Below, piece after piece: positions 6,120 through 21,918 of a DNA stretch of 35,539 nt. Positions within the stretch are counted from its first letter, which is position 1; every line of letters begins with the position of its first letter. Source of the stretch: Dongia sedimenti (lineage in GTDB: Bacteria > Pseudomonadota > Alphaproteobacteria > Dongiales > Dongiaceae); contig JAUYVI010000016.1 in assembly GCA_030715195.1 (NCBI GenBank), forward strand, positions 1 to 35,539, read 5' to 3'. A model generated the notes under the pieces. That model was given only the letters and a program-made list of their open reading frames with translations, did no database searches and was not told the origin of the DNA. The position numbers and the translations under genes were made by a program.

Positions 6120-7040
6120 TCAAACGCCGGCGGCCTTTCTTGAGATTTCCTTCACGCGCCGGACGAGATGTTCGGTGAAGGCATTGCAGATCGCCGACTG
6201 AGGAGTCCCCCATGGACGATACAGGCTCAACTCGATCTGCAACTGCGGGATAAACGGGCGGAACTCGACAGCGTGGCGCATTTTCCACGCGGAGATATTG
6301 TCGACAACGCTGATCCCCGCACCTTCGGCCACAAACTGCAGGCAAGCCGAAGCCAGCGTGCATTCGATGCGCATGTTGCGCTTCACGCCGGCTTCCTCGC
6401 AGACGCGGTCGACCTGCAGTCGCAGCGGATCCGTGCTGCCGAAGGAGATGAAGTCCATACCCTCCATGTCGGTTGGGCGGATTTCATCCAGTGCCGCCAG
6501 CGAATGTCCTTTCGGGATCGCGCAAACGGCCCTCGTCGCTGCCAGCAATCGCCGCGTGACCGCGGAATTCTCGATCATCGAGGTCACGGCGATGCCCATA
6601 TCGATCTGGCCGCGGCTCGCCCGCTCGATGACGGTCGCTGACGCACGGATGTCGATCGTGATCGGAACATCGGGATGTGCTTCGGAAAATTCCGAGACGA
6701 TACCGGGAAGCACGGTCAAGCCGATGGCGGGCAGTGAGCAGATATTCAACCGGCCGTTCTGGAGGCTGCGAATGTCTCTGGCCGTGCGGGAGATCTGCCG
6801 GGCCGATTCATAGGTGCGCTGCACTTCGGCATAGAGCATGTGCGCCTCTTGCGTGGGCACGAGCCGCTGCCGATGCTTCTTGAAGACCTCGAACCCGGCT
6901 TTCTGCTGGAAGCGAGCCAGGGTCTTGCTGACGGCGGGCTGCGTGAGCTCCAGGGCTTCGGCGGCGCGGGTGGTCGTGCCGTGCGTCATGATCGCCGCGA
7001 ACACCTCAATCTCGCGAGGCTTGAAGTCCTCCTCATTCAT
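6120..7040 (-). CDS. LysR-type transcriptional regulator of the catabolic island
   Basis: A 306-residue LTTR. The N-terminal winged helix-turn-helix spans about residues 6-65 (EIEVFAAIMTHGTTTRAAEA, then TQPAVSKTLARFQQKAGFEV), followed by a linker helix and a substrate-binding domain. Its start (ATG 7040) faces the (2Fe-2S) gene across 114 bp, the classic position for a LysR activator of a catabolic operon. Opine-catabolism regulators (OccR, NocR) are also LysR proteins, which fits the oxidase genes next door, but the inducer is unknown. The intergenic region contains one GTTATGAAG site (minus strand, 7080-7088) and a related CATAACTTA close to the (2Fe-2S) start. Confidence 0.93.
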   Translation of the reverse strand: MNEEDFKPREIEVFAAIMTHGTTTRAAEALELTQPAVSKTLARFQQKAGFEVFKKHRQRLVPTQEAHMLYAEVQRTYESARQISRTARDIRSLQNGRLNICSLPAIGLTVLPGIVSEFSEAHPDVPITIDIRASATVIERASRGQIDMGIAVTSMIENSAVTRRLLAATRAVCAIPKGHSLAALDEIRPTDMEGMDFISFGSTDPLRLQVDRVCEEAGVKRNMRIECTLASACLQFVAEGAGISVVDNISAWKMRHAVEFRPFIPQLQIELSLYRPWGTPQSAICNAFTEHLVRRVKEISRKAAGV

Positions 7041-7079
7041 CTGCCGTCCCCGTTATCCGTGCCCCGAACCGCCGCACTA

Positions 7080-7088
7080 CTTCATAAC
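7080..7088 (-). promoter_or_regulatory. GTTATGAAG site 1 (putative LysR operator)
   Basis: On the plus strand this reads CTTCATAAC, between the divergent LysR and (2Fe-2S) genes. The same nonamer recurs at 13593-13601, 19583-19591 and 19664-19672, all between genes of this island. A related GCATAACTTA lies at 7135-7144, just upstream of the (2Fe-2S) start. Assignment to the LysR protein is inferred. Confidence 0.5.
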
Positions 7089-7154
7089 TTTTCGACTGAG
7101 ACTTGCCTCATCTTGGAATTGGCGCCCTGATTAGGCATAACTTACGCTGATCTC

Positions 7155-7487
7155 ATGAACAATCCAGACAAGAATGCAGCCACGGACGGTCCGCTGTTTC
7201 GACGGTTACGCGATGAACCCAGGACCGTCCGCGTGGAGCTCGACGGCGAGACAGTGATGGCCGGTGCGCGGGATACGGTCGCCAGCCTTCTGCTCGGCAG
7301 CGTGGCACCCGATCGCTATCGCCGCTCCGCGGCATCCGGTCACCCGCGCGCGCCGCTTTGCATGATGGGTGTCTGTTTCGAATGTCTGGTGGAGATCGAC
7401 GGGCAGACCAACCAGCAGGGTTGCCTGGTGCGGGTGCGCGATGGCATGCGCATCCGGCGGCAGATCCCGGAAGCGGGTCGTTCATGA
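7155..7487 (+). CDS. (2Fe-2S)-binding small subunit of amino-acid/opine-type dehydrogenase (HcnA-like)
   Basis: A 110-residue ferredoxin-like protein. Four cysteines in the plant-type [2Fe-2S] spacing are visible: Cys69, Cys74 and Cys77 in CMMGVCFECLVEIDG and Cys90 in QQGCLV. Proteins of this size and motif are the small subunits of HcnABC (glycine to cyanide), opine oxidases and D-hydroxyproline/proline dehydrogenases, where they relay electrons from the FAD subunits. The stop codon overlaps the next gene's ATG (ATGA), implying translational coupling and a complex. It is the first gene of the divergent operon. Confidence 0.9.
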   Translation: MNNPDKNAATDGPLFRRLRDEPRTVRVELDGETVMAGARDTVASLLLGSVAPDRYRRSAASGHPRAPLCMMGVCFECLVEIDGQTNQQGCLVRVRDGMRIRRQIPEAGRS

Positions 7488-8878
7488 CCGCGCTCGACCT
7501 TCTCATCGTCGGCGGCGGCGCGGCGGGTCTCTCGGCCGCTGGCGTGGCGCGCGCCATGGACGTTTCCGTCGAGTTGCTCGACGAGCGGCCGGCGCTGGGC
7601 GGCAACTTCTTCGCCGGGATCGGCGAGCGCACCGATGGCGTCGGAGCGTTCGGGCCGGACTACGCGCGCGGTCGGGCGCTGCTCAACGCGGCCGGTGCCG
7701 CCAAGCTGAGCACGGCCACTCTGGCTTGGCGGCTCGAGCGCGACGGGCGCGCCTTTGCGCTGGGCGAGGAGGGCCCGGTTCGATCGATTGCGCCGAAACG
7801 GCTGTTGATCGCGACCGGCGCCATGGAGCGGCCGATCCCGATCCCCGGCGCGATCCTCCCAGGCGTGATGTATGCCGGGGCCGCGCAGCTGATGCTGAAG
7901 ACCGCAAATGTCGCGCCGAGCGGGCGGTGCGTGCTGGTTGGAAGCGGCCCGCTGCTGCTGCTGCTGGCCAAGCAGTTACTCGACTTCGGTGTTGTGCCGT
8001 CCGCGCTGGTCGAGACGACGCCCCGCGCGGGCTTCGCGGCGGTGCTGCAGGGATTGCCCGCTGCGTTGAATTCGCCGGACCTGCTCCGGAAGGGACTGGC
8101 ACTGCAGCGGGCCATCAAGCGTGCCCGCGTCCCCTGGCATCGCCATGTGACCGGGGTGTCGCTGAAGGGCGGCGAGAGGGTGGAGCAGGTCGTGTTCACT
8201 GATGCAAAGGGCCGCAACCAGTCCATCCAAGCCGACCTGGTCCTGCTGCACGATGGGATCATTCCCAATGATCATGTGACGCGGCAGCTGGGATGCAAGG
8301 AAAGCTGGAACGCCGCACAGCACTGTTTCAGCCCGGTCATTGATCAGTGGGGGGAAACGTCGCTGCCCGGCATCTTCGCCGCGGGCGACTGCACCGGAAT
8401 CTGGGGGGCGCAGGCCGCCGAGCTCTCGGGTAAAATCGCCGCGATCGAGATCGGCCGGCAGCTTGGGTGTATCGACCAGCAGGAGCGCGACCGGAAGGCG
8501 CGGGAACCGCTTCTGAAGCTCAAGCGTCAGCGCGCCTTCCGTCCCTTTCTGGAAGCGCGGTTCCCGCCCTCGCTCGCGCGCGCGGAACAGGCCGCGGCAG
8601 ATACGGTGATCTGCCGCTGCGAGAACGTGACCGCGGGGGAAATCCGCTCGGCGGTGGCTCAGGGCGCGACCGGGCCGGATCAGCTGAAGTCGTTCACGCG
8701 GAGCGGTATGGGCCCTTGCCAGGGCAGAAGCTGCGCGATGGCGCTTGCCGAAATCATGGCCCGGGAGCTGGCCTGCGGTGTCCAGGCGGTCGGCCGTCAT
8801 GACATTCGGCCGCCGTTGAAACCGTTGCCGCTCGGGAAGATCGGCGCAGCTCAGGTTGCGTTGGAGACTGTGCCATGA
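7484..8878 (+). CDS. FAD/NAD(P)-binding oxidoreductase, HcnB/opine oxidase subunit A-like
   Basis: A 464-residue protein from the ATG at 7484, which overlaps the upstream stop; the longer open frame before it belongs to the (2Fe-2S) gene region. The N-terminus has a dinucleotide motif, LLIVGGGAAGLSAAGVA, a second nucleotide motif lies in the middle (CVLVGSGPLLLLLAKQL), and GIFAAGDCTGIWG is the FAD-binding C-terminal signature. Near the C-terminus VICRCENVTAGEI and GMGPCQGRSC form a BFD-like [2Fe-2S] cluster site. This is the architecture of HcnB, OoxA/NoxA and D-hydroxyproline dehydrogenase alpha subunits. It probably passes electrons from the DAO-like subunit to the respiratory chain. Confidence 0.92.
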   Translation: MTALDLLIVGGGAAGLSAAGVARAMDVSVELLDERPALGGNFFAGIGERTDGVGAFGPDYARGRALLNAAGAAKLSTATLAWRLERDGRAFALGEEGPVRSIAPKRLLIATGAMERPIPIPGAILPGVMYAGAAQLMLKTANVAPSGRCVLVGSGPLLLLLAKQLLDFGVVPSALVETTPRAGFAAVLQGLPAALNSPDLLRKGLALQRAIKRARVPWHRHVTGVSLKGGERVEQVVFTDAKGRNQSIQADLVLLHDGIIPNDHVTRQLGCKESWNAAQHCFSPVIDQWGETSLPGIFAAGDCTGIWGAQAAELSGKIAAIEIGRQLGCIDQQERDRKAREPLLKLKRQRAFRPFLEARFPPSLARAEQAAADTVICRCENVTAGEIRSAVAQGATGPDQLKSFTRSGMGPCQGRSCAMALAEIMARELACGVQAVGRHDIRPPLKPLPLGKIGAAQVALETVP

Positions 8879-10008
8879 GTGCAAGATCGCGCTCCGGGGT
8901 CGAGTTCGGGGTCATCGGCGGTGGCCTGGTCGGCGCGGCGGTGGCCTATGGGCTGATGCGCAAGGGCCGGCAAGTCGCGCTGTTCGATGAAGGTGACGTG
9001 GCCTTCCGGGCGAGCCGCGGCAATTTCGGCCTGGTCTGGGCGCAGGGCAAGGGCGACAAGCTCGAAGACTACGCACCCTGGGCCCGCGAGGGCGCGGCCA
9101 TGTGGGGCGATTTCGCCAAGGAGTTGACCGCGTCAACCGGGGTGGATCTCGAGCTGGAGCAGCGCGGGGGCTTCGTCTTTTGCGCCGATGAGGTCGCTCT
9201 GCAGGCGCGGGCCGAGATCATGGAGCGCCTCTACAAGCGCAGCGGCCTGCAGTTCGAGGTGATGCGGCCGGCGCAGATCGCCCGGTTCATGCCCGGCGTC
9301 TCCGCAAATTTCGCCGGGGCGACGTATACCGACGAGGACGGTCATGCGAATCCGCTGAAGCTCCTGCGGGCCTTTCACGCGGCGCTGGCGGCGAACGAAG
9401 GGAGTCTGCGCCGCGGCGCGCGAGTCGACCGCATTGAGCCGCTCAGTGGCGGCGGCTATCGCATCGCCACGGCGGAATCGACGGTCGAGTGCGGGAGCGT
9501 GGTGCTGGCGGCGGGTCTCGGCAATATCCTGCTGGCCAAATGCCTCGGCGTCACCCTACCCATCAAGCCGATGCGCGGGCAGATCCTGGTCACGGAGCGG
9601 TATGAAAAGGTCCTGAGCGTGCCGAGCGAGAATGTGCGCCAGACGCAGGATGGTACGTTCCTGCTCGGCGGCAGCTGGGAGGATGTCGGATACGACACAT
9701 CGACGACCTTCGATGTGACGCGCGACATCGCCGCCCTGGTTGTGCGGTATTTTCCGTTCCTCGAGAAAGTCCGCTTGGTCCGCAGCTGGTCCGCGCTGCG
9801 GATCCTGGCCCCGGACAACGCCCCGATCTATGACGAGATCGCGCCGGGTGCGTTTCTGGTAACCTGCCACAGCGGCGTGTCGCTCGCGGCGATCCACGCC
9901 GACCGCGTCGCGGGGTGGATATCCGCTGGATCGATCCCCAAGGAAGCAGCCGCCTTCAGCCTCAACCGTTTCACCGAGGCCGACCGGCGGGAGTACGCCG
10001 TTGGCTGA
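8875..10008 (+). CDS. FAD-dependent DAO-family oxidoreductase, HcnC/opine oxidase subunit B-like (catalytic)
   Basis: A 377-residue DAO-family flavoprotein. The FAD motif FGVIGGGLVGAAVAYGLMRK begins at about residue 11, and the C-terminal LVTCHSGVSLAAIHADRVAGW is typical of glycine oxidase/HcnC/OoxB-like subunits. This subunit should oxidise the C-N bond of an amino acid, N-alkyl amino acid or opine to an imine. The start ATG overlaps the previous stop (ATGA), and its end overlaps the amidase start by 8 bp. With the two preceding genes it completes a three-subunit enzyme. The length is slightly short for HcnC (about 417) but within the range of relatives. The substrate cannot be read from the sequence. 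Confidence 0.92.
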   Translation: MSARSRSGVEFGVIGGGLVGAAVAYGLMRKGRQVALFDEGDVAFRASRGNFGLVWAQGKGDKLEDYAPWAREGAAMWGDFAKELTASTGVDLELEQRGGFVFCADEVALQARAEIMERLYKRSGLQFEVMRPAQIARFMPGVSANFAGATYTDEDGHANPLKLLRAFHAALAANEGSLRRGARVDRIEPLSGGGYRIATAESTVECGSVVLAAGLGNILLAKCLGVTLPIKPMRGQILVTERYEKVLSVPSENVRQTQDGTFLLGGSWEDVGYDTSTTFDVTRDIAALVVRYFPFLEKVRLVRSWSALRILAPDNAPIYDEIAPGAFLVTCHSGVSLAAIHADRVAGWISAGSIPKEAAAFSLNRFTEADRREYAVG

Positions 10009-11302
10009 CGGGGTCGCGGCACGTTCGGTCGAAACCTCTCTCGCGGCCGTCGCGCGCGACAACGACCGCCTCCGCGCGATCAACCATCTCGATCCGGCAG
10101 ACCCAAGGCGTCGGGCCTCATCAGTCGATGATTCCAAGAGCGCGCGGCCGCTGCTCGGCCTGACCTTTGTCGCCAAAGACCTGATCGACGTCGCTGGACT
10201 GCCGAGCACCTGCGGCTCCAAACTCTTCGATGCGACGGTCGCGACCGAGGACGCGCACTGCATCCGCGCGCTGGAGGCGTCCGGCGCGGTGGTTATCGGC
10301 AAGGCCAACATGCATGAACTGGCGGTGGGCGGCGCCCGCAATCCGTGGTTCGGCCAGGTCATCAATCCACTCTCCGCCGAGCATGGCACCGGCGGCACAA
10401 GCAGCGGTTCGGTCGCCGCCGTTGCGGCCGGCTTCTGCGATTTCGCGCTCGGCACCGACAGCGGCGGGTCCAATCGGTCAACGGCGGCGGCGACCGGCCT
10501 GTTCGGCTTCAAGCCGACCAATGGTGCGCTCTCCGTCGACGGCATCGCGCCCCTGGCGCCCAGCCTGGACACGGTCGGCCTGCTCGCCAGGGACGGTTCC
10601 GTGCTGGCCAAGGCGTTCGCGGCCTTGACCGGGCAAAAGCCTGCCGCCGCCAAGCCGACCCTCGCCGGCAAAGTCTTCGCGCGACCGATCGCTCTGCATG
10701 GACCCGTCGATCCGGCGGTACAGGCTGCGCTCCAGCGTGCCGCCGACGCGATACGATCGGCCGGCGGCAAGATCGTCGACATCGATTTCGGTGACGCGGC
10801 CGGCCTCGCGCAAGCGGGCCGCGATATCCTGCGGCACGAATTTTCCTGCCATTACCGGCAGGTCATTGCTTCGCGGTCCGACCGGGTCGGCAAGGACGTC
10901 CAGGCTTTCCTCGCGGCGGCGGCTGAAGTCTCCGCGGCGCAATACGAGGATGCCATCGCCACGGTCGAAGACCATCGTGGGCGGTGGCATGAGCAGCTGC
11001 TGACGGTCGACGCCATGCTCTCTCCGGCGACGCCCGGGCTCGCGCCGCGCCTCTCCGACGAACACACCAAAGTCGGCGACCGATGGGTGCCGTATGGCGC
11101 GTCCGGTGCCGAGTTCCGGATGTGGGCGAACACGATCGGGATCCCGGCGGTCGCCGTTCCCGTCGCCCGTTCCGGTGGGCTTCCCGCATCCGTGCAAATT
11201 GCCGCTCGGCGCAACGCTGACGGCCTTCTGATCGACCTTTCAGCGGCGCTGGGTCGTGAGATTCAAAAACAACGCGCCGCAACAGACAGAGAGGCAATCT
11301 GA
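10001..11302 (+). CDS. Amidase (amidase-signature family)
   Basis: A 433-residue amidase-signature hydrolase with a Ser-cisSer-Lys centre: Lys59 in FVAKDLID, the GGTSSGS loop at 131-137 and nucleophile Ser157 in GTDSGGSNR. The start is a TTG at 10001 with GGGAG eight bases upstream. The gene overlaps the DAO-like gene by 8 bp, so it is translated with it. Amidase-signature enzymes cleave amides, ureas or carbamates, releasing ammonia or an amine. Here it probably hydrolyses an amide of the imported compound before or after the oxidase. The loop has Thr133 where many members have Ser; GGTSSGS variants exist in active members, so I read this as functional. Confidence 0.9.
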   Translation: MADGVAARSVETSLAAVARDNDRLRAINHLDPADPRRRASSVDDSKSARPLLGLTFVAKDLIDVAGLPSTCGSKLFDATVATEDAHCIRALEASGAVVIGKANMHELAVGGARNPWFGQVINPLSAEHGTGGTSSGSVAAVAAGFCDFALGTDSGGSNRSTAAATGLFGFKPTNGALSVDGIAPLAPSLDTVGLLARDGSVLAKAFAALTGQKPAAAKPTLAGKVFARPIALHGPVDPAVQAALQRAADAIRSAGGKIVDIDFGDAAGLAQAGRDILRHEFSCHYRQVIASRSDRVGKDVQAFLAAAAEVSAAQYEDAIATVEDHRGRWHEQLLTVDAMLSPATPGLAPRLSDEHTKVGDRWVPYGASGAEFRMWANTIGIPAVAVPVARSGGLPASVQIAARRNADGLLIDLSAALGREIQKQRAATDREAI

Positions 11303-11303
11303 G

Positions 11304-12086
11304 ATGAAGAAGATCATATGGGGTGCCTTGGGACTGCTGGGCATGGCGATGGCGACATCCCTGCCGGCGCAGTCCGAGGAGGTCATCCGCTTCGGATTGG
11401 CCGCCGAGCCCTATGCGCCGTTTTCGGTCAAGGACGCTTCGGGCAAGTGGACCGGTTGGGAGGTCGACCTCCGCGACGCGGTTTGCGCCGAGATGAAGGT
11501 GAAGTGTGAATGGGTGGAGGTCGCCTGGGATGGCATCATCCCGGCGTTGCTGGAGAAGAAATTCGACGTCATCTGGTCGTCGATGTCGATCACCGACGAG
11601 CGCATGAAGGTGATCAGCTTTACCGACAAGTACTATTTCTCGCCGGCGGTCTGGGTCGGCCCCAAGTCGGACACCCGCAAGCTCGATCCCGCCAATCCGG
11701 CCTCGCTCGACGGTCTCACCGTCGGAGCGCAGGGGGCGACTTCGCACCAGAACTACATGGAGAAGTATTTCAAGGGCCATGCCGACCTGAAGCTCTATGA
11801 CACGCTGGACGCCGAGGAATCCGATCTCAAGGCCGGCCGCATCGATCTGCTGATGGCTTCCGGGATCCAGATTTCCGACTGGCTGAAGACCCCGGACGGC
11901 GCCGATTACGAGATCAAGGTCAAGCTGCCGAACGACCAGCTGTTCGGCTACGGGGACGGTGGCGGCCTGCGCAAGGAAGATAACGCGCTGCGGGAGCGCC
12001 TCAACGCCGCGATCAAGGCGGTGCGCGCCAGCGGCAAGTACAAGGAAATCACGGCCAAGTATTTCGATTTCGATATCTACGAATGA
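11304..12086 (+). CDS. Polar amino acid ABC transporter, periplasmic substrate-binding protein
   Basis: A 260-residue family 3 solute-binding protein. The signal peptide MKKIIWGALGLLGMAMATS ends near PAQS, after which mature-type sequence begins (VIRFGLAAEPYAPFSVKDAS). The ATG at 11304 is chosen over an upstream in-frame start because of the signal peptide and a Shine-Dalgarno GAGAGG about nine bases upstream. Family features include the GKWTGWEVDLRDAVCAEM and DVIWSSMSITDERMK segments. It follows the amidase by one base, so it belongs to the same transcript. It probably captures the amino-acid-like substrate of the neighbouring oxidase. Confidence 0.93.
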   Translation: MKKIIWGALGLLGMAMATSLPAQSEEVIRFGLAAEPYAPFSVKDASGKWTGWEVDLRDAVCAEMKVKCEWVEVAWDGIIPALLEKKFDVIWSSMSITDERMKVISFTDKYYFSPAVWVGPKSDTRKLDPANPASLDGLTVGAQGATSHQNYMEKYFKGHADLKLYDTLDAEESDLKAGRIDLLMASGIQISDWLKTPDGADYEIKVKLPNDQLFGYGDGGGLRKEDNALRERLNAAIKAVRASGKYKEITAKYFDFDIYE

Positions 12087-12104
12087 GCTTGAGAAGGCAG
12101 AATG

Positions 12105-12133: not shown

Positions 12134-12155
12134 TCTGCCGAATGGATCGCCGCAG

Positions 12156-12875
12156 ATGGATCTTGGATGGCTCTCCGGGCTTGCCTACGGCGACACAGGG
12201 TGGGGCGATGAGCTGCTGCGGGGCGCCCTGCTCACCCTCTCGATATCCGGCTGCAGCTACCTGCTTGGATTGATCCTCGGGCTCATTGGCGCGGCCGCGA
12301 AATCCTCGCGCAGCAGGTTTGCGAGGACGCTCGCCTGGTTCTACACGACGATCGTGCGCGCCGTTCCGGAACTGCTTCTCATCCTCCTGATCTACTACAC
12401 GAGCACCTCGGCCTTGCGGCAGGTGATTGTCGGCCTCGGCATCGCGCAGGATTTCGAGGTCAACGGCTTCGTCGCCGCATGCCTCTCCCTGGGCTTTGTC
12501 CAGGGCGCCTACAGCACGGAGGTGTTCCGCGGCGCGATCTCCGCCGTTGCGAGGGGGCAGCGCGAGGCCGCCGCGGCCCTCGGCCTGTCGCGCCGGCACA
12601 CCTGGTGGTTGGTCATCTTTCCGCAGATGCTGCAAAGGGCGCTGCCCGGCCTCGGCAATCTCTGGCTGGTGGTGCTCAAGGAGAGCGCGCTGATTTCGGT
12701 GGTCGGCTTCAGCGAGCTGCTGTTCACCGCCAAGATGGCGGGTGGCGCCAGCCACAACTATCTCTTCTTCTTCCTGACCGTCGCGATTGCCTACCTCGTC
12801 CTCTCGGTCGCATCCGCGCGGATCTTCGAAGTGATCGAGCGCCACATCGGACGCCATGAACGGGCGCAGGGCTGA
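12156..12875 (+). CDS. Polar amino acid ABC transporter permease (first)
   Basis: A 239-residue HisM/GlnP-type inner-membrane permease with about five hydrophobic segments. Its EAA loop is EAAAALGLSRRHTWWLVIFP, the contact site for the ATPase. A start at 12102 with a Shine-Dalgarno (GAAGG) is possible and gives 257 residues. I prefer ATG 12156 because the extra 18 residues do not look like a permease N-terminus and are encoded by the stem-loop, whereas MDLGWLSGLAYGDTGWGDEL looks like the family N-terminus. Its stop overlaps the next permease start by one base. Confidence 0.9.
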   Translation: MDLGWLSGLAYGDTGWGDELLRGALLTLSISGCSYLLGLILGLIGAAAKSSRSRFARTLAWFYTTIVRAVPELLLILLIYYTSTSALRQVIVGLGIAQDFEVNGFVAACLSLGFVQGAYSTEVFRGAISAVARGQREAAAALGLSRRHTWWLVIFPQMLQRALPGLGNLWLVVLKESALISVVGFSELLFTAKMAGGASHNYLFFFLTVAIAYLVLSVASARIFEVIERHIGRHERAQG

Positions 12876-13570
12876 TGGATTCCGGCTTCATCGCACTCCT
12901 GGCCGAGAAGCTCGTCGAAGGGCTGAAGACAACCCTGCTCCTGATGGCGATCTGCGGTGTTTTCGGCAACCTGCTCGCCGTCCCCATCGCCTTTGCCCGC
13001 ATCTCGCCGCGAAGCTCGTTGCGCAAGCCTGCCTATATCTTCATCCTGGTGCTGCGCGGCACGCCCGTCCTGGTGCAGCTCTATCTGTTCTACTACGGCC
13101 TCGGCGAGATCCTCAGCCGCACGCCCTCCCTGCGCCACAGCATGCTGTGGCCCTATCTGCGATCGGCATTCGGCTACGCGGCGCTGGCCCTGACGCTCAA
13201 CACGGCGGCCTATTGCGCCGAGATCTGGCGCGGCGCCCTGGAGGGGCTGCCGAAGGGGCAGGTGGAGGCCGCCAAGTCGCTGGGCCTGAAACCCTGGCAG
13301 TTTCGCCTCCTGGTGATCCTGCCGCAGGCCTTTCGCAATGCGCTTCCAGCCCTCTCCGGCCAGAACGTCCTGCTCCTCAAGGCGACGTCGCTGGCCTCGA
13401 CCATCACCATCTTCGAAGTGATGGGCGCCGCCAATCTGGTCCGCTCGCAGACCTTCCGGGTCTATGAAAGCCTGTTCGGCGCGGCGCTGGTCTATGTCGC
13501 ACTGACGGTCGCGATCACGTTCATGTTCTCGCTGGTCGAGCGCTGGGTCAACAAACCTTACCGGCACTGA
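12875..13570 (+). CDS. Polar amino acid ABC transporter permease (second)
   Basis: A 231-residue HisQ/HisM-type permease. It has a hydrophobic N-terminal helix, the conserved RGTPVLVQLYLFYYG segment (about residues 60-74), and the EAA loop EAAKSLGLKPWQFRLLVILP (about 132-151). It pairs with the preceding permease as a heterodimer. The ATP-binding subunit expected in such operons is not encoded after it or elsewhere in the island. The next gene starts a different (peptide-type) importer 168 bp on. The ATPase must come from another locus, or be shared. Confidence 0.92.
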   Translation: MDSGFIALLAEKLVEGLKTTLLLMAICGVFGNLLAVPIAFARISPRSSLRKPAYIFILVLRGTPVLVQLYLFYYGLGEILSRTPSLRHSMLWPYLRSAFGYAALALTLNTAAYCAEIWRGALEGLPKGQVEAAKSLGLKPWQFRLLVILPQAFRNALPALSGQNVLLLKATSLASTITIFEVMGAANLVRSQTFRVYESLFGAALVYVALTVAITFMFSLVERWVNKPYRH

Positions 13571-15315: not shown

Positions 15316-15316
15316 T

Positions 15317-16255
15317 ATGGCCCAGGTCGCCCTCCGTCGCCTGTTGAGCGCGCTGATCCTGGTGGCGGTGGCCTCGGTCGCGTGCTTCTCGATAGTCGCC
15401 GTGTTCCCCGGCAACGTCGCGCGGGTGATCGCGGAGATGCGGTCATCGACGGTGTCGGACGAGATCGTGAAGCAGATCGAGGTGCAATACGGTCTCAAGG
15501 ACCCGGTGCCGCTGCGCTATTTGCGCTGGGCGGGACGGGCGGTGCGCGGCGATCTCGGGGAGTCGCTCCGGACAGGTCAGCCGGTGGCGAAGGATCTGGT
15601 CAGGCGCGCCCCGCTGACCGTGATCCTCATCCTCGGCGGCGGCGCGTTCACGCTGGTCATGGGCATGGGCCTCGCGTTCCTGGGGGCGCTCTGGTCCGAC
15701 TCGGTCATCGACCGGATCATCCATGTACTGTCGCTGATCGGGGCTTCGGCTCCCAAGTTCTTCATTGCCGCGCTGCTGGTCTATCTGTTCGGCGTCGTCT
15801 TCCGGATCTTGCCGACCTATGGCTTCGCCGGTCCGGCTTCCTGGATCCTGCCCTGCATTTCGATCGGCATCATTCCGGGATCGATTCTCAGCCGCGTGGC
15901 GCGCGTGGCGCTCGCCGAGGAAATGAGCCGGCAGTACGTGGTGACGGCGATCAGCAAGGGCCTGCCACGGCGCCGGATCCTGGTCCATGACGCGCTGCCG
16001 AACGCCCTGCCGGTCACGATCAACGCCTTTGCCATGCACTTCGCCTTCATGGTGCAGGCGGCCTTGGTGATCGAACCGATCTTCGCCTGGCAGGGTATCG
16101 CCGCCTACTTCGTGGAGGCCGTCCGCTTTCGGGACTACCAGGTGCTGCAGTCGTGCCTCCTGGTGTTCTGCGTCTTCTTCATCCTGGTCAATCTCTCGGT
16201 CGACCTGATCTCCATGGCGCTCGACCCCAAGCAGAGTCGGCAGAGGCTCGCCTGA
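15317..16255 (+). CDS. Peptide-type ABC transporter permease DppB-like
   Basis: A 312-residue permease from ATG 15317, one base after the preceding stop. The N-terminal helix (LLSALILVAVASVACFSIVA) is followed by the soluble segment VIAEMRSSTVSDEIVKQIEV and YGLKDPVPLRYLRW. These are hallmarks of DppB/OppB/GsiC proteins; about six membrane segments follow. The EAA loop AISKGLPRRRILVHDALPNA is the ATPase contact. It forms the translocation pore with the next gene product, whose ATG overlaps its stop by one base. Confidence 0.93.
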   Translation: MAQVALRRLLSALILVAVASVACFSIVAVFPGNVARVIAEMRSSTVSDEIVKQIEVQYGLKDPVPLRYLRWAGRAVRGDLGESLRTGQPVAKDLVRRAPLTVILILGGGAFTLVMGMGLAFLGALWSDSVIDRIIHVLSLIGASAPKFFIAALLVYLFGVVFRILPTYGFAGPASWILPCISIGIIPGSILSRVARVALAEEMSRQYVVTAISKGLPRRRILVHDALPNALPVTINAFAMHFAFMVQAALVIEPIFAWQGIAAYFVEAVRFRDYQVLQSCLLVFCVFFILVNLSVDLISMALDPKQSRQRLA

Positions 16256-17154
16256 TGCCCGCGTGGTTCGACGCAGCACTCTCCTTTGCGTGCCGCCTGG
16301 GATGGCCTGCGATCCTGGTCGTGGCCATCGATCTTGTGCTGGCGCTGTTCGCGCAGCATCTGACGCCTTACAGCCCGACCGCCCAGGACCTGATGTCGGC
16401 GAACCAGACCTTCTCCGCCGCGCACCTGCTCGGCACCGATCACCTCGGCCGGGACACCCTCAGCCGCCTGATAGCGGGATCGCAGACGACGCTGGTCGCG
16501 GTCGCCGTGGTGGTCGTCCTGGCGATGCTGATCGGCGTCGTGATCGGCACGATCTCCGGCTATGTCGGCGGCTGGCTCGACGAGATCGTGATGCGCAGCG
16601 TGGATTTCATGCTGAGCGTACCTTCGCTGATCGTCGCGCTGGCGATGATCGGGATCTTCGGCCTCGGCTACTGGAACATGGTCGCGGCGCTGACCATCGC
16701 CTGGATCCCGAGCTATGCGCGCATCACGCGGGGCGTGGTCGTAGCCACGGTGCATCAGCCGCATATCGAAAGCCTCTGGGTGCTCGGCGCCTCGCGGACG
16801 CGGTTGATCGCCTTCCATCTCCTGCCGGCCGCTTTGCGCTCCATCCTGGTCTATGCCTCGGTCGATGCCGGGGTGCTGGCGCTGGCCATCGCAACACTGA
16901 GCTTCCTCGGCCTTGGCATCCAGCCGCCGATGTCCGAATGGGGTGAAATGTTCGTCGATGCGATGCCCTATCTGGACTTCAGCCCGCGACAGATCGTGCT
17001 GCCCGGCCTCGCGCTGACGCTCACGGTCGCCGGGTTCAACTATCTCGGAGAACGCCTCGCTTCGCTCGACGCGCCCCGTGCCATCTCCGGCCGGACCTTG
17101 CGGAAGCGGCTTGCAACCGCGCAAAGGCTGCTCGTTTCGCGGACGATGCAGTGA
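16255..17154 (+). CDS. Peptide-type ABC transporter permease DppC-like
   Basis: A 299-residue permease. The early HLLGTDHLGRDTLSRLIAGS motif (about residues 57-76) is diagnostic of DppC/OppC/GsiD. The EAA loop is in ESLWVLGASRTRLIAFHLLP. Membrane segments and length are usual for the family. It pairs with the DppB-like permease. The stop overlaps the GTG start of the first ATPase gene (GTGA), so the operon is translationally coupled. Confidence 0.93.
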   Translation: MPAWFDAALSFACRLGWPAILVVAIDLVLALFAQHLTPYSPTAQDLMSANQTFSAAHLLGTDHLGRDTLSRLIAGSQTTLVAVAVVVVLAMLIGVVIGTISGYVGGWLDEIVMRSVDFMLSVPSLIVALAMIGIFGLGYWNMVAALTIAWIPSYARITRGVVVATVHQPHIESLWVLGASRTRLIAFHLLPAALRSILVYASVDAGVLALAIATLSFLGLGIQPPMSEWGEMFVDAMPYLDFSPRQIVLPGLALTLTVAGFNYLGERLASLDAPRAISGRTLRKRLATAQRLLVSRTMQ

Positions 17155-18194
17155 CCGTGCAGCGCCATCCCGCGACATCCACCGTGCCCGGCGCCAGGGA
17201 TCCCCTCCTCAGCGTCAAAGGCCTTTCGGTCCTGCTGTTCACGGAGACCGCGACGGTTCGCGCGGTGACCGATGTCGCCTACACGGTGCATCGCGGCGAG
17301 ACACTGGCCATCGTCGGTGAGAGCGGCAGCGGCAAGACGGTTATGAATCTGGCACCGCTCGGGCTGATGCCCGGCGGTGTGCGGGCGGTGGTGAGCGGCT
17401 CGGTGAGGCTCTCGGGCGAGGATCTGACGCAGGCAAGCGAAGACCGGCTGATGCAGGTTCGCGGCCGGAAGGTCGGCGTGGTGTTCCAGGATCCACTCAG
17501 CGCCCTCAATCCCAATCGCCGCGTCGGGCCGCAGATCGAGGAGGTATTCCGCCTCCGTCTGGGCCTCGATGCCGCAGCTTCCCATGCGCGGGCCATCGAG
17601 TTCCTCCGCATGGTCGGCATTCCGGAGCCGGAGCGTCGGCTGCGCATGTTCCCGCACGAGATGTCCGGCGGCATGCGGCAGCGGGTAATGATCGCGATCG
17701 CGATCGCCGCCGAACCGGAGCTTCTAATCGCCGACGAACCGACCACCGCTCTCGACGTGACGATCCAGAGCCAGCTGCTTGAGCTGCTCATGCGGCTGCA
17801 GAAGCAGCTCGGCATGGCCATGGTCCTTGTCACGCACGACGTCGGCGTGGTGGCGCGGGTCGCGGACCGGGTCGCGGTGATGTATGCCGGGGAGATCGTC
17901 GAGCTCGGCACGGCGGAAGAAATCCTGAAACGGCCGCGGCATCCCTATACGCGCGCCTTGCTGGCGGCGGTGCCGGAACCCGATGCACCCGTCGGCAGCC
18001 GCTTCACCGGCCTCTCGGGCTCGCCGCCCGATCTCAGCAATCCCGCGGTCGGCTGCGCCTTCGCCCCGCGCTGCCCGCTGGTGCAGGGCGAATGCACCCG
18101 GGCGACACCAATGCTGACCCAGGCCGAGGGCAGCGGCCACCTTGCCGCCTGCTGGGTGTCCACGCCCCAGGTCGCCGAAAGGCCGACGCGATGA
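17151..18194 (+). CDS. Peptide-type ABC transporter ATP-binding protein DppD-like
   Basis: A 347-residue ATPase starting at GTG 17151, overlapping the preceding stop. Walker A is GESGSGKT (about residues 56-63), the Q-loop VFQDPLSALNP, the signature MSGGMRQRV, Walker B LLIADEPTTALDV, and the switch His is in LVTHDVGVVA. The C-terminal oligopeptide-transporter extension with a cysteine-containing motif (GCAFAPRCPLVQGEC) is present; in some relatives this binds an iron-sulfur cluster. It energises the importer together with the DppF-like ATPase, and overlaps it by 4 bp (ATGA). Confidence 0.94.
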   Translation: MTVQRHPATSTVPGARDPLLSVKGLSVLLFTETATVRAVTDVAYTVHRGETLAIVGESGSGKTVMNLAPLGLMPGGVRAVVSGSVRLSGEDLTQASEDRLMQVRGRKVGVVFQDPLSALNPNRRVGPQIEEVFRLRLGLDAAASHARAIEFLRMVGIPEPERRLRMFPHEMSGGMRQRVMIAIAIAAEPELLIADEPTTALDVTIQSQLLELLMRLQKQLGMAMVLVTHDVGVVARVADRVAVMYAGEIVELGTAEEILKRPRHPYTRALLAAVPEPDAPVGSRFTGLSGSPPDLSNPAVGCAFAPRCPLVQGECTRATPMLTQAEGSGHLAACWVSTPQVAERPTR

Positions 18195-19159
18195 CCCTGC
18201 TCAAAGTTTCGGACCTGGTGGTCGAGTTCCAGGACGCTGCCACCGGTCGCATCAATCGCGCCTGCAACCAGGTTTCGCTCGACATCGAGGCCGGCGAGAT
18301 CGTCGGGCTCGTCGGCGAGTCCGGCTGCGGCAAGTCCACTCTCGGCCGCGCCATCGTCGGCCTCGAGCATCCGAAGTCGGGGTCGATCGTCTTCGACGGC
18401 GTGGATATTCTGAGCCTGCCCGCCGCGGCACGGCGCCAGGCGCGGCGAAGGGTCCAGTACATCTTCCAGGATTCCCTGGCGGCGCTCGAGCCCCGGCAGA
18501 CCATCGGCTCCGCGCTGCATGAGGCGCTCATCATCCGTGGTGAGCGCAACCCGCGCGCCCGCGCGGCACGGATCGGGGAGATCCTTGCGGCAACCAATCT
18601 AAACTCCGGGATCCTGACACGGCGTCCGCGCGAGCTCTCGGGCGGGCAGCGCCAGCGCGTATGCATCGCGCGCGCTCTCCTGGCCGAACCCAAGCTGCTC
18701 ATCTGCGATGAGCCGGTGAGCTCGCTCGACACGTCGCTGAGGGCGCAGGTGATGAACGTGTTTCTCAACCTGCGCGACGAACTGGGCGTCGCGATCGTCT
18801 TGATCGCGCACGACCTCGCGCTGGTACGGCAGGCCAGCGCCCGGGTCAACGTCATGTATCTGGGGCGCATCGTCGAAAGCGGTCCGAGCGGCGCGCTCTA
18901 TGCGCAACCGCTCCATCCCTACAGCCGGGCGCTGACCGCGGCGATCCTCGGCATCGACCCCGAGGTGGAGCGGCATCGCGAGCAAACGGTGCTGAAAGGC
19001 GATCTGCCCAGCCCCTTCGCGCCGCCCAGCGGGTGCAGCTTCCGCACCCGCTGTCCGGATGCATCCGACCGCTGCGCGGCGGCGGAACCGGCTGCCCTTG
19101 TCCGTGAAGGCCGCTCGGTCCGATGCAAACTCTACGACGAGACCGCGGCTGTGAACTGA
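18191..19159 (+). CDS. Peptide-type ABC transporter ATP-binding protein DppF-like
   Basis: A 322-residue ATPase. Walker A is GESGCGKST, the signature LSGGQRQRV, and Walker B LLICDEPVSSLDTS, with the switch His in LIAHDLALV. The C-terminus has the family's FRTRCPDASDRC motif. It is the last gene of the A-B-C-D-F importer. Its 3' end overlaps the 3' end of the convergent RidA gene by 28 bp (19132-19159), so a double-stranded terminator or antisense effect is possible where the two transcripts meet. Confidence 0.94.
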   Translation: MTLLKVSDLVVEFQDAATGRINRACNQVSLDIEAGEIVGLVGESGCGKSTLGRAIVGLEHPKSGSIVFDGVDILSLPAAARRQARRRVQYIFQDSLAALEPRQTIGSALHEALIIRGERNPRARAARIGEILAATNLNSGILTRRPRELSGGQRQRVCIARALLAEPKLLICDEPVSSLDTSLRAQVMNVFLNLRDELGVAIVLIAHDLALVRQASARVNVMYLGRIVESGPSGALYAQPLHPYSRALTAAILGIDPEVERHREQTVLKGDLPSPFAPPSGCSFRTRCPDASDRCAAAEPAALVREGRSVRCKLYDETAAVN

Positions 19160-19491
19160 ATCTCGACCTGGATGTCGGGCAGGCCCAGGACCGCCTGCAC
19201 GGTCGCCCGTGCCGGAGGTTCGTTGCGGTCGATCCATTCGATCCAGGCGGCGTTCATGCGGTCAAAATCCGCGATGTCGCGCAGCCAGATCGTCGCGCTC
19301 AGCACCGCGGCGCGGTTGGATCCGACCGACTCCAGGAACCCGTCCGCCTTCGCGAGGATCTGCCGCGTTTGCCCGACGACATCCTGCTTCCGGTCGTCTG
19401 CTGTCAGGCCGGAGAAGTACGCCACCTTTTCATGCACGACGACACGGCTCAAACGCTCTGTCTTCCCGATACGCTCGATCTTCACATCCAT
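19132..19491 (-). CDS. RidA family enamine/imine deaminase
   Basis: A 119-residue protein of the RidA/YjgF/UK114 family. Signatures are YFSGLTADD (position of the usual SGQ/SG motif), ILAKADGFLESVGSNRAAVL and ARATVQAVLGLPDIQVEIQF. The arginine in PPARATVQ corresponds to the carboxylate-binding Arg105 of E. coli RidA. It hydrolyses reactive enamine/imine intermediates to keto acid and ammonia. This is exactly what an amino-acid oxidase produces, so it fits the island. The ATG at 19491 is preferred over an upstream in-frame start at 19647, which would add 52 residues unlike the family. It is transcribed opposite to the transporter genes and divergent from the cyclodeaminase-like gene. Confidence 0.9.
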   Translation of the reverse strand: MDVKIERIGKTERLSRVVVHEKVAYFSGLTADDRKQDVVGQTRQILAKADGFLESVGSNRAAVLSATIWLRDIADFDRMNAAWIEWIDRNEPPARATVQAVLGLPDIQVEIQFTAAVSS

Positions 19492-19582
19492 CTCCGCCTG
19501 GTTAGAAATGCTGGCCAGCTTCCTTTTGCGGAAGCCGGCCCCCGCGGTCAAATAACCGGACCGCACCGGTTCATCGCCGAGA

Positions 19583-19591
19583 GTTATGAAG
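19583..19591 (+). promoter_or_regulatory. GTTATGAAG site 3 (putative LysR operator)
   Basis: The nonamer lies 92 bp upstream of the RidA start, in the divergent RidA / cyclodeaminase-like region (19492-19741). It is 81 bp from site 4, in the same orientation. Confidence 0.45.
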
Positions 19592-19663
19592 GACGCGCGC
19601 GCCGCGCCCCGACAAGCTGCGCGCGGCTTTCTATGAAATTGCCACAAGAGCAGCGTGCAACGG

Positions 19664-19672
19664 GTTATGAAG
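19664..19672 (+). promoter_or_regulatory. GTTATGAAG site 4 (putative LysR operator)
   Basis: The nonamer lies 69 bp upstream of the cyclodeaminase-like start codon. Between sites 3 and 4 a short GC-rich hairpin (GCCGCGC 19601-19607 with GCGCGGC 19621-19627) precedes TTT, a possible weak terminator or attenuator; I give that little weight. Confidence 0.45.
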
Positions 19673-19741
19673 TTTCGAGGGCAGTGCGGCCAGCGCCCGG
19701 TGCTATTCCTTGTTGCGCCGAAAATCTCTCAAGGATCGCCG

Positions 19742-20761
19742 ATGTCCGCGTCTTTCCCTCGGATCGCACGTCCGGCGAGCGGCCTGCTCGTGATCGACGG
19801 CGCCACCGTGGAAGACCTGGTGAGTCCGTCCGAGGCGCTGCCACTGGTCGAGGACGCGCTCAGAAAGACCTCCAGCGGCGTCGCGCAGCAGGATGTCCGG
19901 CGCACGCTCGGCCTCCCGGGAGAGGCGGGGACGTGCCTGTCACTGATGTATGCGTCGCTGGCGGACCGGCCGCATTTCGGTGCCAAGGTCCAATCGGTTT
20001 TCCCGAAGAACTTCGAACAGCAAATGCCGTCCCATCAGGGCGGTGTCATTCTCTTTGAAGCGGAGACGGGACGGCCCGTCGCCTTGATCAACGCGACCGC
20101 GATCACCGGGCTGCGGACGCCGGCCGCGACCGCGGTTGCCACCCGCACCTTGTCGCGGCCGGAATCTTGCGAACTGGCGATTCTGGGCTACGGCGAGCAA
20201 GCTGAGCGGCACATCGCCAGCATCGCCCTGGTGCGGCCGATCTCCCGCATCCGCGTCTGGGGGCGGGACTTCCACAAGGCCGCGACCTTTGCGAATGCGC
20301 AGAGGGAGAAGGGCCATCAGATCGACCCGATGCCGACGGCACAGGCCGCGGTCGAGGGCGCCGACATCGTCTGCACCGTCACTTCCGCGCAATTGCCGGT
20401 GCTGCAGGGGGCGTGGTTGGCGCCCGGCGCCCATGTCAACGCCGTCGGGGCGAGCGTGCCGGCGCTGCGCGAGATCGACCTCGATTGCGTCACGCGCGCC
20501 CGCATCTGGGTCGACTACATGCCGATGGCGCTGACGGCGGCGGCGGACATCTTCGAGCCGCTCTCCGCCGGGCTGATCGATCGCGCGCGGATCGTCGGTG
20601 AAATCGGCGCCGTGCTCAACGGCCAGGCACCGGGCCGTGGCGACGACCAGGAGATCAGCCTGTACCGCTCGCTCGGCGTTCCGGCGCAGGACATCGAGTT
20701 CGCCAACTTCGTCTATCGCCGGGCGCGGGAACTCGGCCGCGGCGTCGAAATTTCACTGTGA
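19742..20761 (+). CDS. Ornithine cyclodeaminase / mu-crystallin family protein
   Basis: A 339-residue protein from the ATG at 19742, with AAGGATC seven bases upstream. Family landmarks are FGAKVQSVFPKN (substrate-binding region), ALINATAITGLRTPAATAVA, the dinucleotide motif LAILGYGEQAERHIASIA (GxGxxA-like) and the later DIVCTVTSAQLPVLQG and HVNAVGA. Members include ornithine cyclodeaminase, delta1-pyrroline-2-carboxylate or other ketimine reductases, and alanine dehydrogenases. Next to a RidA and an imine-forming oxidase, a ketimine reductase or cyclodeaminase acting on the oxidase product is the best guess. Opine operons also often carry an ornithine cyclodeaminase. Its stop lies 9 bp before the ATG of the PLP enzyme. 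Confidence 0.9.
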   Translation: MSASFPRIARPASGLLVIDGATVEDLVSPSEALPLVEDALRKTSSGVAQQDVRRTLGLPGEAGTCLSLMYASLADRPHFGAKVQSVFPKNFEQQMPSHQGGVILFEAETGRPVALINATAITGLRTPAATAVATRTLSRPESCELAILGYGEQAERHIASIALVRPISRIRVWGRDFHKAATFANAQREKGHQIDPMPTAQAAVEGADIVCTVTSAQLPVLQGAWLAPGAHVNAVGASVPALREIDLDCVTRARIWVDYMPMALTAAADIFEPLSAGLIDRARIVGEIGAVLNGQAPGRGDDQEISLYRSLGVPAQDIEFANFVYRRARELGRGVEISL

Positions 20762-20769
20762 GGGTTCGC

Positions 20770-21918
20770 ATGCTTCCCAGCCAGCGACATCTGTTCTCGA
20801 TCCCCGAAGACGTGACCTACCTGGATGCCGCCTACATGTCGCCGATACCCCGGAGCGCCGCGGAGGCGGGGGCGAAGGGCGTGCAGGTGAAGGCGGCGCC
20901 TTGGGCCATGACCATCGGCTCCTATTACGACGAGTGCGAGCGCGCCCGGACGCTGGCGGCCTCGTTCATCGGCGCGACGCCCGACGACATCGCCATCATC
21001 CCGGCGACCAGCTACGGCATTGCCGTCGCCGCCGCCAATGTCGCGGTCAAGCCTGGCTCAGTCATCCTGATGATGGAGAACGAGCATCCGTCGCATCGAT
21101 ACGCCTGGTACGAAATCGCGCGGCAGAAGGGCGCCGCGGTGGTGACCGTTTCGCGGCAGCCCGATGAACCCTGGGCGGCGGCGCTCGCGGCGGCGATCCG
21201 CAACGCAAAGGCGCCGGTCTCCGTGGTTGCCGGAACCCTCGTTCACTGGTTCGAAGGGATGACCGTGGACATCGCTGTGGTCGCGGAGGCGGCCCGCGCC
21301 GTCGGCGCGAGCCTGGTCCTGGACGGCACGCAATGGGTCGGCGCGGTTCCCTTCGATGTGTCGCGTGTCCGCCCGGATTTCCTGTCCTTTGCCACCTACA
21401 AATTCCTGCTCGGTCCGTACCGCCTGGCATTCCTCTACGCCGACAAGGCCTGGCAGGAGAAAGGCCGGCCGATCGAGTTCCATTCGTGGAACCGCATCGG
21501 CGGCGATCGCTCCGACTTCTATCTGGAAACGATGCCGGATTATCTGCCCGGCGCCCGCCGCTTCGACATGGGAGAGCGCTCCGATTTCGCAGTCCTGCCC
21601 ATTGCGATCAATGCGATGGAGCTGCTTCAGGGCTGGGGCGCGCCGGCGGTATCCGAGCGGCTCTCGCATCTGAACCGCCTGATCTGGCGCGAGGCGGAAC
21701 GGCATGGTTTCGGTGGTCCGAGGGCGGATCTGCGGGCGCCGCATATTTCCGTTGTGGAGCTTGGCGAACGGTTTCGCGGCGAGCTCGCACGCCAGCTCAA
21801 GGAGGCGAAGGTCTTCGTGACAATCCGCGGAACGAAGATGCGGATCACACCGCACATCTACAACGAAGACGAAGATGTCGCGAAGCTGTTCGCGCTTACC
21901 AATAGCGTGACATCATGA
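20770..21918 (+). CDS. Class V aminotransferase-fold PLP enzyme
   Basis: A 382-residue fold-type I PLP enzyme related to kynureninase, isopenicillin-N epimerase and cysteine desulfurase. VTYLDAAYMSPIP starts the fold, DGTQWVGAVPFDV carries the cofactor Asp185 and Gln188, and Lys211 in FATYKFLLGPY forms the Schiff base. ATG 20770 has GAGGG five bases upstream; a GTG at 20758 overlapping the previous stop is the alternative. It closes the island and probably transaminates, racemises, or lyses a C-C/C-S bond of the amino-acid product. The reaction cannot be chosen from sequence alone. Confidence 0.88.
   Translation: MLPSQRHLFSIPEDVTYLDAAYMSPIPRSAAEAGAKGVQVKAAPWAMTIGSYYDECERARTLAASFIGATPDDIAIIPATSYGIAVAAANVAVKPGSVILMMENEHPSHRYAWYEIARQKGAAVVTVSRQPDEPWAAALAAAIRNAKAPVSVVAGTLVHWFEGMTVDIAVVAEAARAVGASLVLDGTQWVGAVPFDVSRVRPDFLSFATYKFLLGPYRLAFLYADKAWQEKGRPIEFHSWNRIGGDRSDFYLETMPDYLPGARRFDMGERSDFAVLPIAINAMELLQGWGAPAVSERLSHLNRLIWREAERHGFGGPRADLRAPHISVVELGERFRGELARQLKEAKVFVTIRGTKMRITPHIYNEDEDVAKLFALTNSVTS

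What the first reader, a model, noticed from the sequence alone, without database searches (positions are those of the whole stretch)
6120..21918. Self-contained catabolic island: three-subunit amino-acid/opine-type oxidase, imine-handling enzymes and two importers
HcnABC/OoxAB-like subunits make an imine by oxidising a C-N bond. RidA, a cyclodeaminase/ketimine-reductase-family protein, an amidase and a class V PLP enzyme are the enzymes needed next, and two ABC importers could bring in the substrate. A LysR regulator heads the set. The combination resembles opine catabolism (LysR + opine oxidase + ornithine cyclodeaminase + importer). The amidase, RidA, PLP enzyme and Dpp-type importer make it different from the octopine/nopaline operons I know, so it may degrade an undescribed conjugated or N-substituted amino acid.
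Basis: partly seen in the sequence, partly recalled or inferred. Interest (0 to 1): 0.75.

Follow-up and report, generated by a model that had tools for sequence, protein, structure and literature searches.

The report
Conserved opine-type amino-acid catabolism island
A 16-kb gene island carries a set of genes that 17 other bacterial loci also keep together, probably to import and break down an opine-like (N-substituted, perhaps arginine-based) compound; the compound itself is unknown, and two very different oxidases can fill the same slot.

Summary
The island at 6120-21918 is real: LysR, a gamma-alpha-beta flavin dehydrogenase, amidase, an Occ/HisJ-type importer without ATPase, a NikA-like/Dpp importer, RidA (minus strand), an OCD-family reductase and a class V PLP enzyme. 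A genome scan with the PLP gene alone gave 17 loci: all carry RidA, OCD-family, LysR and an oxidase, 16 the amidase, 13 the Occ-type binding protein. None of 20 loci with 40-46% PLP relatives does. The oxidase is exchangeable: three-subunit only in 4 loci plus the window, a distantly related single-subunit enzyme only in 7, both in 6. The beta subunit forms its own clade outside OoxB and NoxB. The binding protein keeps the arginine-side residues of NocT/OccJ but lacks the amine lock of arginine binders. Best reading: an undescribed octopine-like module for an N-substituted (or D-) arginine-type amino acid; substrate and the roles of amidase, reductase and PLP enzyme are inferred. Carrier CG5 is published as growing on octopine but has a second candidate cluster. 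RidA does not separate this from octopine operons.

The parts
6120..7040 (-). LysR-type regulator, divergent from the operon
   Evidence: HTH_1 + LysR_substrate; related gene in 17/17 module loci
7155..7487 (+). gamma subunit (HcnA/OdhC-like), [2Fe-2S] ferredoxin
   Evidence: Fer2_4 E 3.1e-22; C-X4-C-X2-C-X12-C
7484..8878 (+). alpha subunit (HcnB/OoxA-like), FAD and BFD-type [2Fe-2S]
   Evidence: Pyr_redox_2, Fer2_BFD, SO_alpha_A3; GxGxxG and CxC-X32-CX4C
8875..10008 (+). beta subunit (HcnC/OoxB-like), DAO family
   Evidence: DAO E 3.3e-57; own clade 100/99; RxW motif
10001..11302 (+). amidase-signature hydrolase
   Evidence: Amidase E 1.1e-67; 16/17 module loci
11304..12086 (+). periplasmic binding protein, HisJ/LAO/OccJ/NocT group
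   Evidence: SBP_bac_3; binding-site residues
12102..12875 (+). amino-acid ABC permease (OccQ-like); start uncertain
   Evidence: BPD_transp_1
12875..13570 (+). amino-acid ABC permease (OccM-like)
   Evidence: BPD_transp_1
13738..15315 (+). NikA/CntA-like binding protein of the Dpp type
   Evidence: SBP_bac_5 E 5.1e-83; TIGR02294 337.8 bits, cut-off 393
15326..16255 (+). DppB-type permease; start uncertain
16270..17154 (+). DppC-type permease; start uncertain
17151..18194 (+). DppD-type ATPase
   Evidence: ABC_tran + oligo_HPY
18191..19159 (+). DppF-type ATPase
   Evidence: ABC_tran + oligo_HPY
19132..19491 (-). RidA-family imine hydrolase, catalytic Arg kept
   Evidence: Ribonuc_L-PSP E 2.4e-20; R94 invariant in 8 of 8 aligned
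19742..20761 (+). OCD/mu-crystallin-family reductase, not octopine-type OCD
   Evidence: OCD_Mu_crystall E 1.1e-65; best solved match a pyrroline-2-carboxylate reductase; GAS for GGD
20758..21918 (+). class V PLP-fold enzyme; starts at 20758 (overlapping the OCD stop) or at the ATG at 20770, where the annotated homologues begin
   Evidence: Aminotran_5 E 1.1e-23; 59-78% identity across 14 module loci aligned

Best explanation
A LysR-controlled catabolic module of the opine-dehydrogenase kind. An Occ/Noc-type binding protein (and here also a NikA-like/Dpp importer) brings in an amino acid whose alpha-amine is substituted, probably with an arginine-like side. A heterotrimeric FAD/FMN/[2Fe-2S] dehydrogenase oxidises its C-N bond to an imine. 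RidA speeds imine hydrolysis. The OCD-family reductase and the class V PLP enzyme, two adjoining genes, process the released imino/keto acid, and the amidase hydrolyses an amide or lactam in the substrate or a product. Shown: the gene set, its conservation, the cofactor motifs, the exchange of the oxidase gene. Inferred: the substrate class (from binding-site residues), the enzyme activities and the order of steps. Weakest: what amidase and PLP enzyme do.
For: RidA, OCD-family, LysR and an oxidase in 17/17 loci found with the PLP gene, in differing gene orders; control 0/20. Either of two distantly related FAD enzymes fills the oxidase slot, and the choice differs among closely related Mesorhizobium-type modules. 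Two GxGxxG, two [2Fe-2S] motifs and the RxW motif that PMC4575208 assigns to FMN are kept. Residues Glu36, Tyr39, Trp77, Arg102, Gln165 (NocT numbering; PMC4192606, PMC5740067, passages) are kept in 12 of 12 module binding proteins compared (of 15 held) and in 0 of 11 control proteins; Asp161 of LAO, which holds the free alpha-amine, is Ser, Ala or Gly. RidA keeps its Arg; RidA and Rid2 hydrolyse imines from an amino acid oxidase (PMC4433059, passages). CG5 grows well on octopine (PMC10745273), and its module trio is one of only two strong OoxB homologues in that genome.
Against: No biochemical data on any module protein. The other CG5 cluster (L150) could explain growth on octopine. The OCD-family protein is not octopine-type and no arginase family was matched in the island. 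L093 (Kaistia), L100 and L102 lack a complete Occ-type importer in the DNA held. The keto-acid side of the pocket differs from OccJ at 4 of 5 positions in the window. The Glu36 match depends on a one-residue gap in the alignment, and one unrelated protein of the same genome keeps 4 of the 5 residues. Loci with both oxidases may mean two substrates rather than one slot.
Confidence: 0.5

Rival explanations
1. D-amino-acid inversion, like the DauA/DauB pair: the FAD enzyme turns a D-amino acid (for example D-arginine) into the imine, RidA makes the keto acid, the OCD-family reductase aminates it to the L-form, and the PLP enzyme and amidase degrade it further.
For: D-Arg dehydrogenase + Rid + DauB chemistry is described in PMC5619798 (abstract and passages). 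That DauB belongs to the OCD family is recalled, not fetched. The binding protein lacks the L-amine lock. The single-subunit enzyme is closest to a solved 'Glycine/D-amino acid oxidase', 7fgp.
Against: The characterised relatives of the trio act on opines, D-hydroxyproline, L-proline or glycine (PMC4575208, passages). DauA and DauB sequences were not fetched, so kinship was not tested either way.
Confidence: 0.25
2. Cyclic imino-acid catabolism (hydroxyproline, pipecolate or proline type): the oxidase makes a pyrroline/piperideine carboxylate and the OCD-family protein reduces it.
For: Best solved match of the OCD-family protein is a delta1-pyrroline-2-carboxylate reductase; D-hydroxyproline dehydrogenase is a related trio (PMC4575208).
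Against: No proline-racemase or DHDPS-type match in the island and none named beside the module on pAtS4e; amidase and PLP unexplained.
Confidence: 0.12
3. Hydrogen cyanide synthase (HcnABC) from glycine that happens to sit in a catabolic island.
For: Same gamma-alpha-beta make-up (gene order of hcnABC recalled); best NCBIfam match of the beta subunit is glycine oxidase ThiO, 136 bits, cut-off 251.
Against: In 7 of 17 loci a single-subunit FAD enzyme is there instead; two importers and RidA are not needed to make cyanide. HcnC itself could not be placed in the tree.
Confidence: 0.05

Closest known systems
Flavin-containing opine dehydrogenase OdhABC / OoxAB / NoxAB
   Same: Three tandem subunits with two FAD motifs, the RxW motif and two [2Fe-2S] motifs; order C-A-B as given for B. 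thailandensis (PMC4575208).
   Different: Beta subunit about 39-40% identical to OoxB and NoxB and outside their branches; in other loci a distantly related single-subunit enzyme stands in its place.
Octopine (occ) operon of Ti plasmids
   Same: LysR, OccQMT-like importer parts, oxidase trio, RidA, OCD-family gene (L116).
   Different: OCD-family gene 28% identical without the GGD motif; amidase and class V PLP gene added; no ATPase beside the importer in the window; NikA-like importer added.
NikA/CntA metal-chelate importers
   Same: SBP_bac_5 protein whose best NCBIfam matches are NikA and CntA; best solved match 4wed, then NikA proteins.
   Different: Below the NikA cut-off (337.8 of 393 bits); NikA's metal-binding His416 (number and role recalled) is not kept in the alignment.
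D-arginine DauA/DauB system
   Same: FAD oxidation, Rid, then a reductase (PMC5619798).
   Different: Sequence kinship not tested; importers, amidase and PLP enzyme are extra.

Membership tests
Flavin-containing opine dehydrogenase (Odh/Oox/Nox) | three tandem genes gamma, alpha, beta | tested here: met
Flavin-containing opine dehydrogenase (Odh/Oox/Nox) | cofactor motifs: two GxGxxG, two [2Fe-2S], RxW | tested here: met
   same in the OoxABC and NoxABC references; the spacing found in alpha is X32 (X33 in NoxA), whereas the text of PMC4575208 prints X15-20
Flavin-containing opine dehydrogenase (Odh/Oox/Nox) | beta subunit inside the OoxB or NoxB branch | tested here: not met
   own clade 100/99
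Flavin-containing opine dehydrogenase (Odh/Oox/Nox) | opine dehydrogenase activity | not testable with these tools
   needs enzyme assay
Octopine catabolic operon | octopine-type ornithine cyclodeaminase | tested here: not met
   27-28% identity, GAS for GGD; no listed NCBIfam cut-off reached
Octopine catabolic operon | OccJ octopine-binding signature, ten residues (PMC5740067) | tested here: not met
   6 of 10 kept in the window
Octopine catabolic operon | arginine-moiety residues of OccJ/NocT | tested here: met
   5 of 5; Glu36 rests on a gap placement
HcnABC hydrogen cyanide synthase | beta subunit in the HcnC clade | not tested
   no labelled HcnC was fetched
D-hydroxyproline dehydrogenase pathway | epimerase and DHDPS-type deaminase beside the trio (recalled) | tested here: not met
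   no such Pfam match in the island; none named beside the module on pAtS4e
NikA nickel importer | NCBIfam TIGR02294 cut-off 393 bits | tested here: not met
   337.8 bits
OCD/mu-crystallin family | PF02423 above its cut-off | tested here: met
   222 bits, cut-off 24

The most novel reading that the evidence does not exclude
A previously undescribed opine-degradation pathway, scattered through Rhizobium, Agrobacterium vitis, Kaistia, Hoeflea, Martelella and Mesorhizobium, in which a heterotrimeric opine dehydrogenase and a distantly related single-subunit FAD enzyme do the same step and displace each other. The single-subunit enzyme would be the homomeric opine dehydrogenase whose discovery, PMC4575208 says, may strengthen its view of how such enzymes arise. 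The released imino acid is handled by a ketimine reductase and a class V PLP enzyme instead of arginase and ornithine cyclodeaminase.
Probability: 0.35. Interest if true: 0.7.

Novelty: new variant of a known kind. Interest (0 to 1): 0.52.

Why it matters
It gives a compact, testable gene set for an unassigned nitrogen compound, and a natural experiment in which two very different flavoenzymes swap in one pathway. One carrier was isolated from a grapevine crown gall, so the module may widen the list of compounds over which gall bacteria compete.

Tried and rejected
PLP enzyme as a guide to function: its 40-46% relatives lie in other contexts (8 of the 68 neighbouring proteins scanned are phosphoglycerate dehydrogenases), so they say little. 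AlphaFold model of the PLP enzyme: mean pLDDT 62, too poor for a fold search, which was not run. Curated NCBIfam names: none of the matches listed for nine island proteins reaches its cut-off (three of the lists were capped at 25, the tenth protein given was a spurious frame; permeases, ATPases and RidA were not in that call). Empty site: the DacF-ClpS-ClpA side matches 6 of 6 other genus genomes, while 22833-25241 has one 26-base match in one of them and 3199-5060 gives only short matches; exact borders were not found. GC as a mark of foreign origin: dropped, see observation check. Mesorhizobium nickel paper PMC5315480 (passages) has an opine dehydrogenase compared there with the NAD-dependent Arthrobacter enzyme, so it was dropped. 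Paper searches listed no paper that I recognised as describing this gene set, in an open-licence library that lacks most subscription papers and all figures; most listed papers were seen as titles and abstract starts only.

L099 (Rhizobium sp. G21) has its beta subunit, OCD-family, binding-protein and amidase genes each matched in two pieces; it was counted as carrying them, its binding protein was left out, and only its longer beta-subunit piece entered the tree. L091 and L106 (A. vitis) were also left out. The Kaistia beta subunit was found after the tree and is not in it. Four of the 11 other SBP_bac_3 matches of the genome did not reach the cut and are not among the controls.
Full report
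What is there. The window is a whole contig (C8) of a 6.13-Mb genome. Open reading frames and Pfam place LysR (-), then gamma, alpha and beta subunits, amidase, binding protein, two permeases, a NikA-like binding protein and DppBCDF on the plus strand, RidA on the minus strand, and an OCD-family gene adjoining a class V PLP gene on the plus strand. The importer with the SBP_bac_3 protein has no ATPase gene of its own in the window. In six other loci (L090, L092, L094, L095, L096, L099) an ATPase lies beside RidA; in L090 it is 46% identical to OccP.

Not shared within the genus. The beta subunit has no close relative in 16 of 16 other genus or family genomes. The neighbouring block DacF-ClpS-ClpA (27096-32427) matches 6 of 6 other genus genomes, whereas 22833-25241 has one 26-base match in one of them and 3199-5060 only short ones. 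So the island sits in an accessory stretch beside conserved genes. GC does not mark it off from the conserved block.

Conserved as a unit. A scan of a collection of 84,980 species genomes with the PLP protein alone gave 17 loci, two of them from A. vitis: Rhizobium, Agrobacterium vitis, Kaistia, Hoeflea, Martelella, Mesorhizobium and unnamed Hyphomicrobiales. The scan finds only close relatives, so 17 is a lower bound; in a separate draw of 385 genomes of the class no other genome had a PLP match above 46% identity. By tblastn, RidA, OCD-family and LysR are in 17 of 17 (PLP by construction), amidase in 16 (not L102), the SBP_bac_3 protein in 13, close relatives of the NikA/Dpp importer in 3 (L093, L100, L102). 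The same set is on plasmid pAtS4e of Allorhizobium ampelinum S4 (L067; identities). Clustering of all frames in 17 loci (L067 and L090-L105) gave no widely shared gene outside the module: of the clusters in three or more loci without a module match, nearly all members overlap a module gene by more than half, the only exceptions being one member each in four clusters. Gene order and strand differ between loci. As a control, 20 loci with 40-46% PLP relatives show none of the OCD-family, RidA, LysR, amidase or oxidase genes at 1e-10 within the 6.8-19.3 kb held.

Two oxidases, one slot. In A. vitis and A. ampelinum the FAD enzyme beside RidA is only 21-24% identical to the window's beta subunit; both belong to the same broad FAD family. 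Over the 17 loci: three-subunit only in 4 (L097, L098, L101, L102; the window is a fifth case), single-subunit only in 7 (L091, L092, L096, L103, L104, L105, L106), both in 6 (L090, L093, L094, L095, L099, L100). For Kaistia (L093) the trio lay just beyond the fetched stretch and was found by a genome search, in the same order gamma-alpha-beta-amidase as in the window. The genomes of L092, L096 and L103 have no beta-subunit match at 1e-30; those of L091, L104, L105 and L106 have matches of 36-44% identity elsewhere, which were not placed in the tree. Window, L097 and L101 genomes have no single-subunit match at 1e-30, and L098 and L102 only 29-32% ones. On a tree of the PLP protein the three states need six changes, and they differ among closely related Mesorhizobium-type sequences (L101 and L102, both from assembled metagenomes, against L103-L105); the deep forks of that tree are weak. 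This points to displacement of one oxidase by another for the same job, though the six loci with both could instead use two substrates or two enantiomers.

The dehydrogenase. The window, four other module loci, L113, OoxABC and NoxABC (8 of 8 examined) carry C-X4-C-X2-C-X12-C in gamma, CxC-X32-CX4C in alpha (X33 in NoxA), GxGxxG in alpha and beta, and RxW in beta. PMC4575208 (passages) describes alpha4beta4gamma4 opine dehydrogenases with FAD, FMN and [2Fe-2S], notes subunit exchange, and says that finding a homomeric opine dehydrogenase may strengthen its hypothesis. In a tree of 38 beta subunits all 10 module sequences then held plus Sinorhizobium mexicanum L113 form one clade (100/99); OoxB (pTi1D1609) and NoxB (pTiC58) lie outside. 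L113 is a smaller cluster: NikA-like importer, RidA, trio, LysR, with no amidase, OCD-family or PLP gene among the annotated genes of the 17 kb.

The substrate. The binding protein's best solved matches are HisJ, LAO, octopine- and nopaline-binding proteins. With NocT and OccT in the alignment, 12 of the 15 module copies held were compared; 12 of 12 keep Glu36, Tyr39, Trp77, Arg102 and Gln165, which hold the arginine side and carboxylate in NocT and OccJ (PMC4192606, PMC5740067; passages). LAO has Asp, Tyr, Phe, Arg, Leu there. Of 11 control SBP_bac_3 proteins (seven from the same genome, four from other loci) none has all five; the best has four. Two proteins beside other opine-type trios have five and four. 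LAO's Asp161, which holds the free alpha-amine, is Ser in the window and Ser, Ala or Gly elsewhere. At the keto-acid side the window has Ser97, Ala117, Ser169, His170, Ser207: three as NocT, one as OccJ and LAO, one as none of them. This suggests an arginine-like compound without a free L-alpha-amine: an octopine-family opine, or a D-amino acid.

RidA, OCD-family and PLP. RidA keeps the arginine needed for imine hydrolysis; PMC4433059 (passages) reports clustering of Rid genes with FAD amine oxidases and PLP enzymes and hydrolysis of oxidase-made imines. The OCD-family protein is 27-28% identical to octopine/nopaline OCD and has GAS where they have GGD (that the Asp is catalytic is recalled); its best solved relatives are pyrroline-2-carboxylate reductase, mu-crystallin and alanine dehydrogenase. 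The PLP gene begins within nine bases of its stop codon or overlaps it, so the two are probably made together. The PLP enzyme matches the cysteine-desulfurase/kynureninase side of class V weakly.

A published strain. L090 is titled Rhizobium sp. CG5 with accession JABAEF; PMC10745273 (section 9 and passages) lists JABAEF000000000 among its accessions, reports that the non-virulent grapevine-gall isolate CG5 grew well on octopine, and says it has two clusters with the essential genes. In this genome only two strong OoxB homologues exist, the module's (by coordinates) and one on contig C6. The C6 cluster has another importer, OoxBCA-like genes and RidA but no OCD match in 18 kb. So the module was probably drawn as an opine cluster in that paper's figure (not seen), but which cluster serves octopine is unknown.

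Verdict. The module is certain, an opine-type catabolic role likely, the exact substrate open. It is a new variant of a known kind.

Noticed in passing
22833-25241 (+): 802-aa open frame with no Pfam match even at E 1; in 6 other genus genomes only one 26-base match.
   Followed up: partly
46-1539 (+): RTX-type calcium-binding repeat protein (HemolysinCabind, six stretches) at the contig start.
   Followed up: no
L150 (Rhizobium sp. CG5, contig C6): Second opine-type cluster with OoxBCA-like genes and RidA beside a different importer.
   Followed up: partly
L112, L114, L122, L125: Clusters with two FAD oxidase genes around one gamma-alpha pair, three of the four with RidA beside them, recalling the B1-C-A-B2 order of B. 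japonicum.
   Followed up: no
L119 (Agrobacterium fabrum pAt2788b), 1646-3040: Another opine-type trio with RidA has an amidase gene next to its LysR gene; 28% identical to the window's amidase.
   Followed up: partly
L070, L074, L079, L080, L084, L087 and others: Distant PLP relatives lie beside phosphoglycerate dehydrogenase (8 of 68 neighbour proteins scanned; loci read from identities); function unknown.
   Followed up: no
G000 contig C6, 10551-11761: The genome has a second alpha-subunit-like gene and an adjoining DAO-family gene.
   Followed up: no
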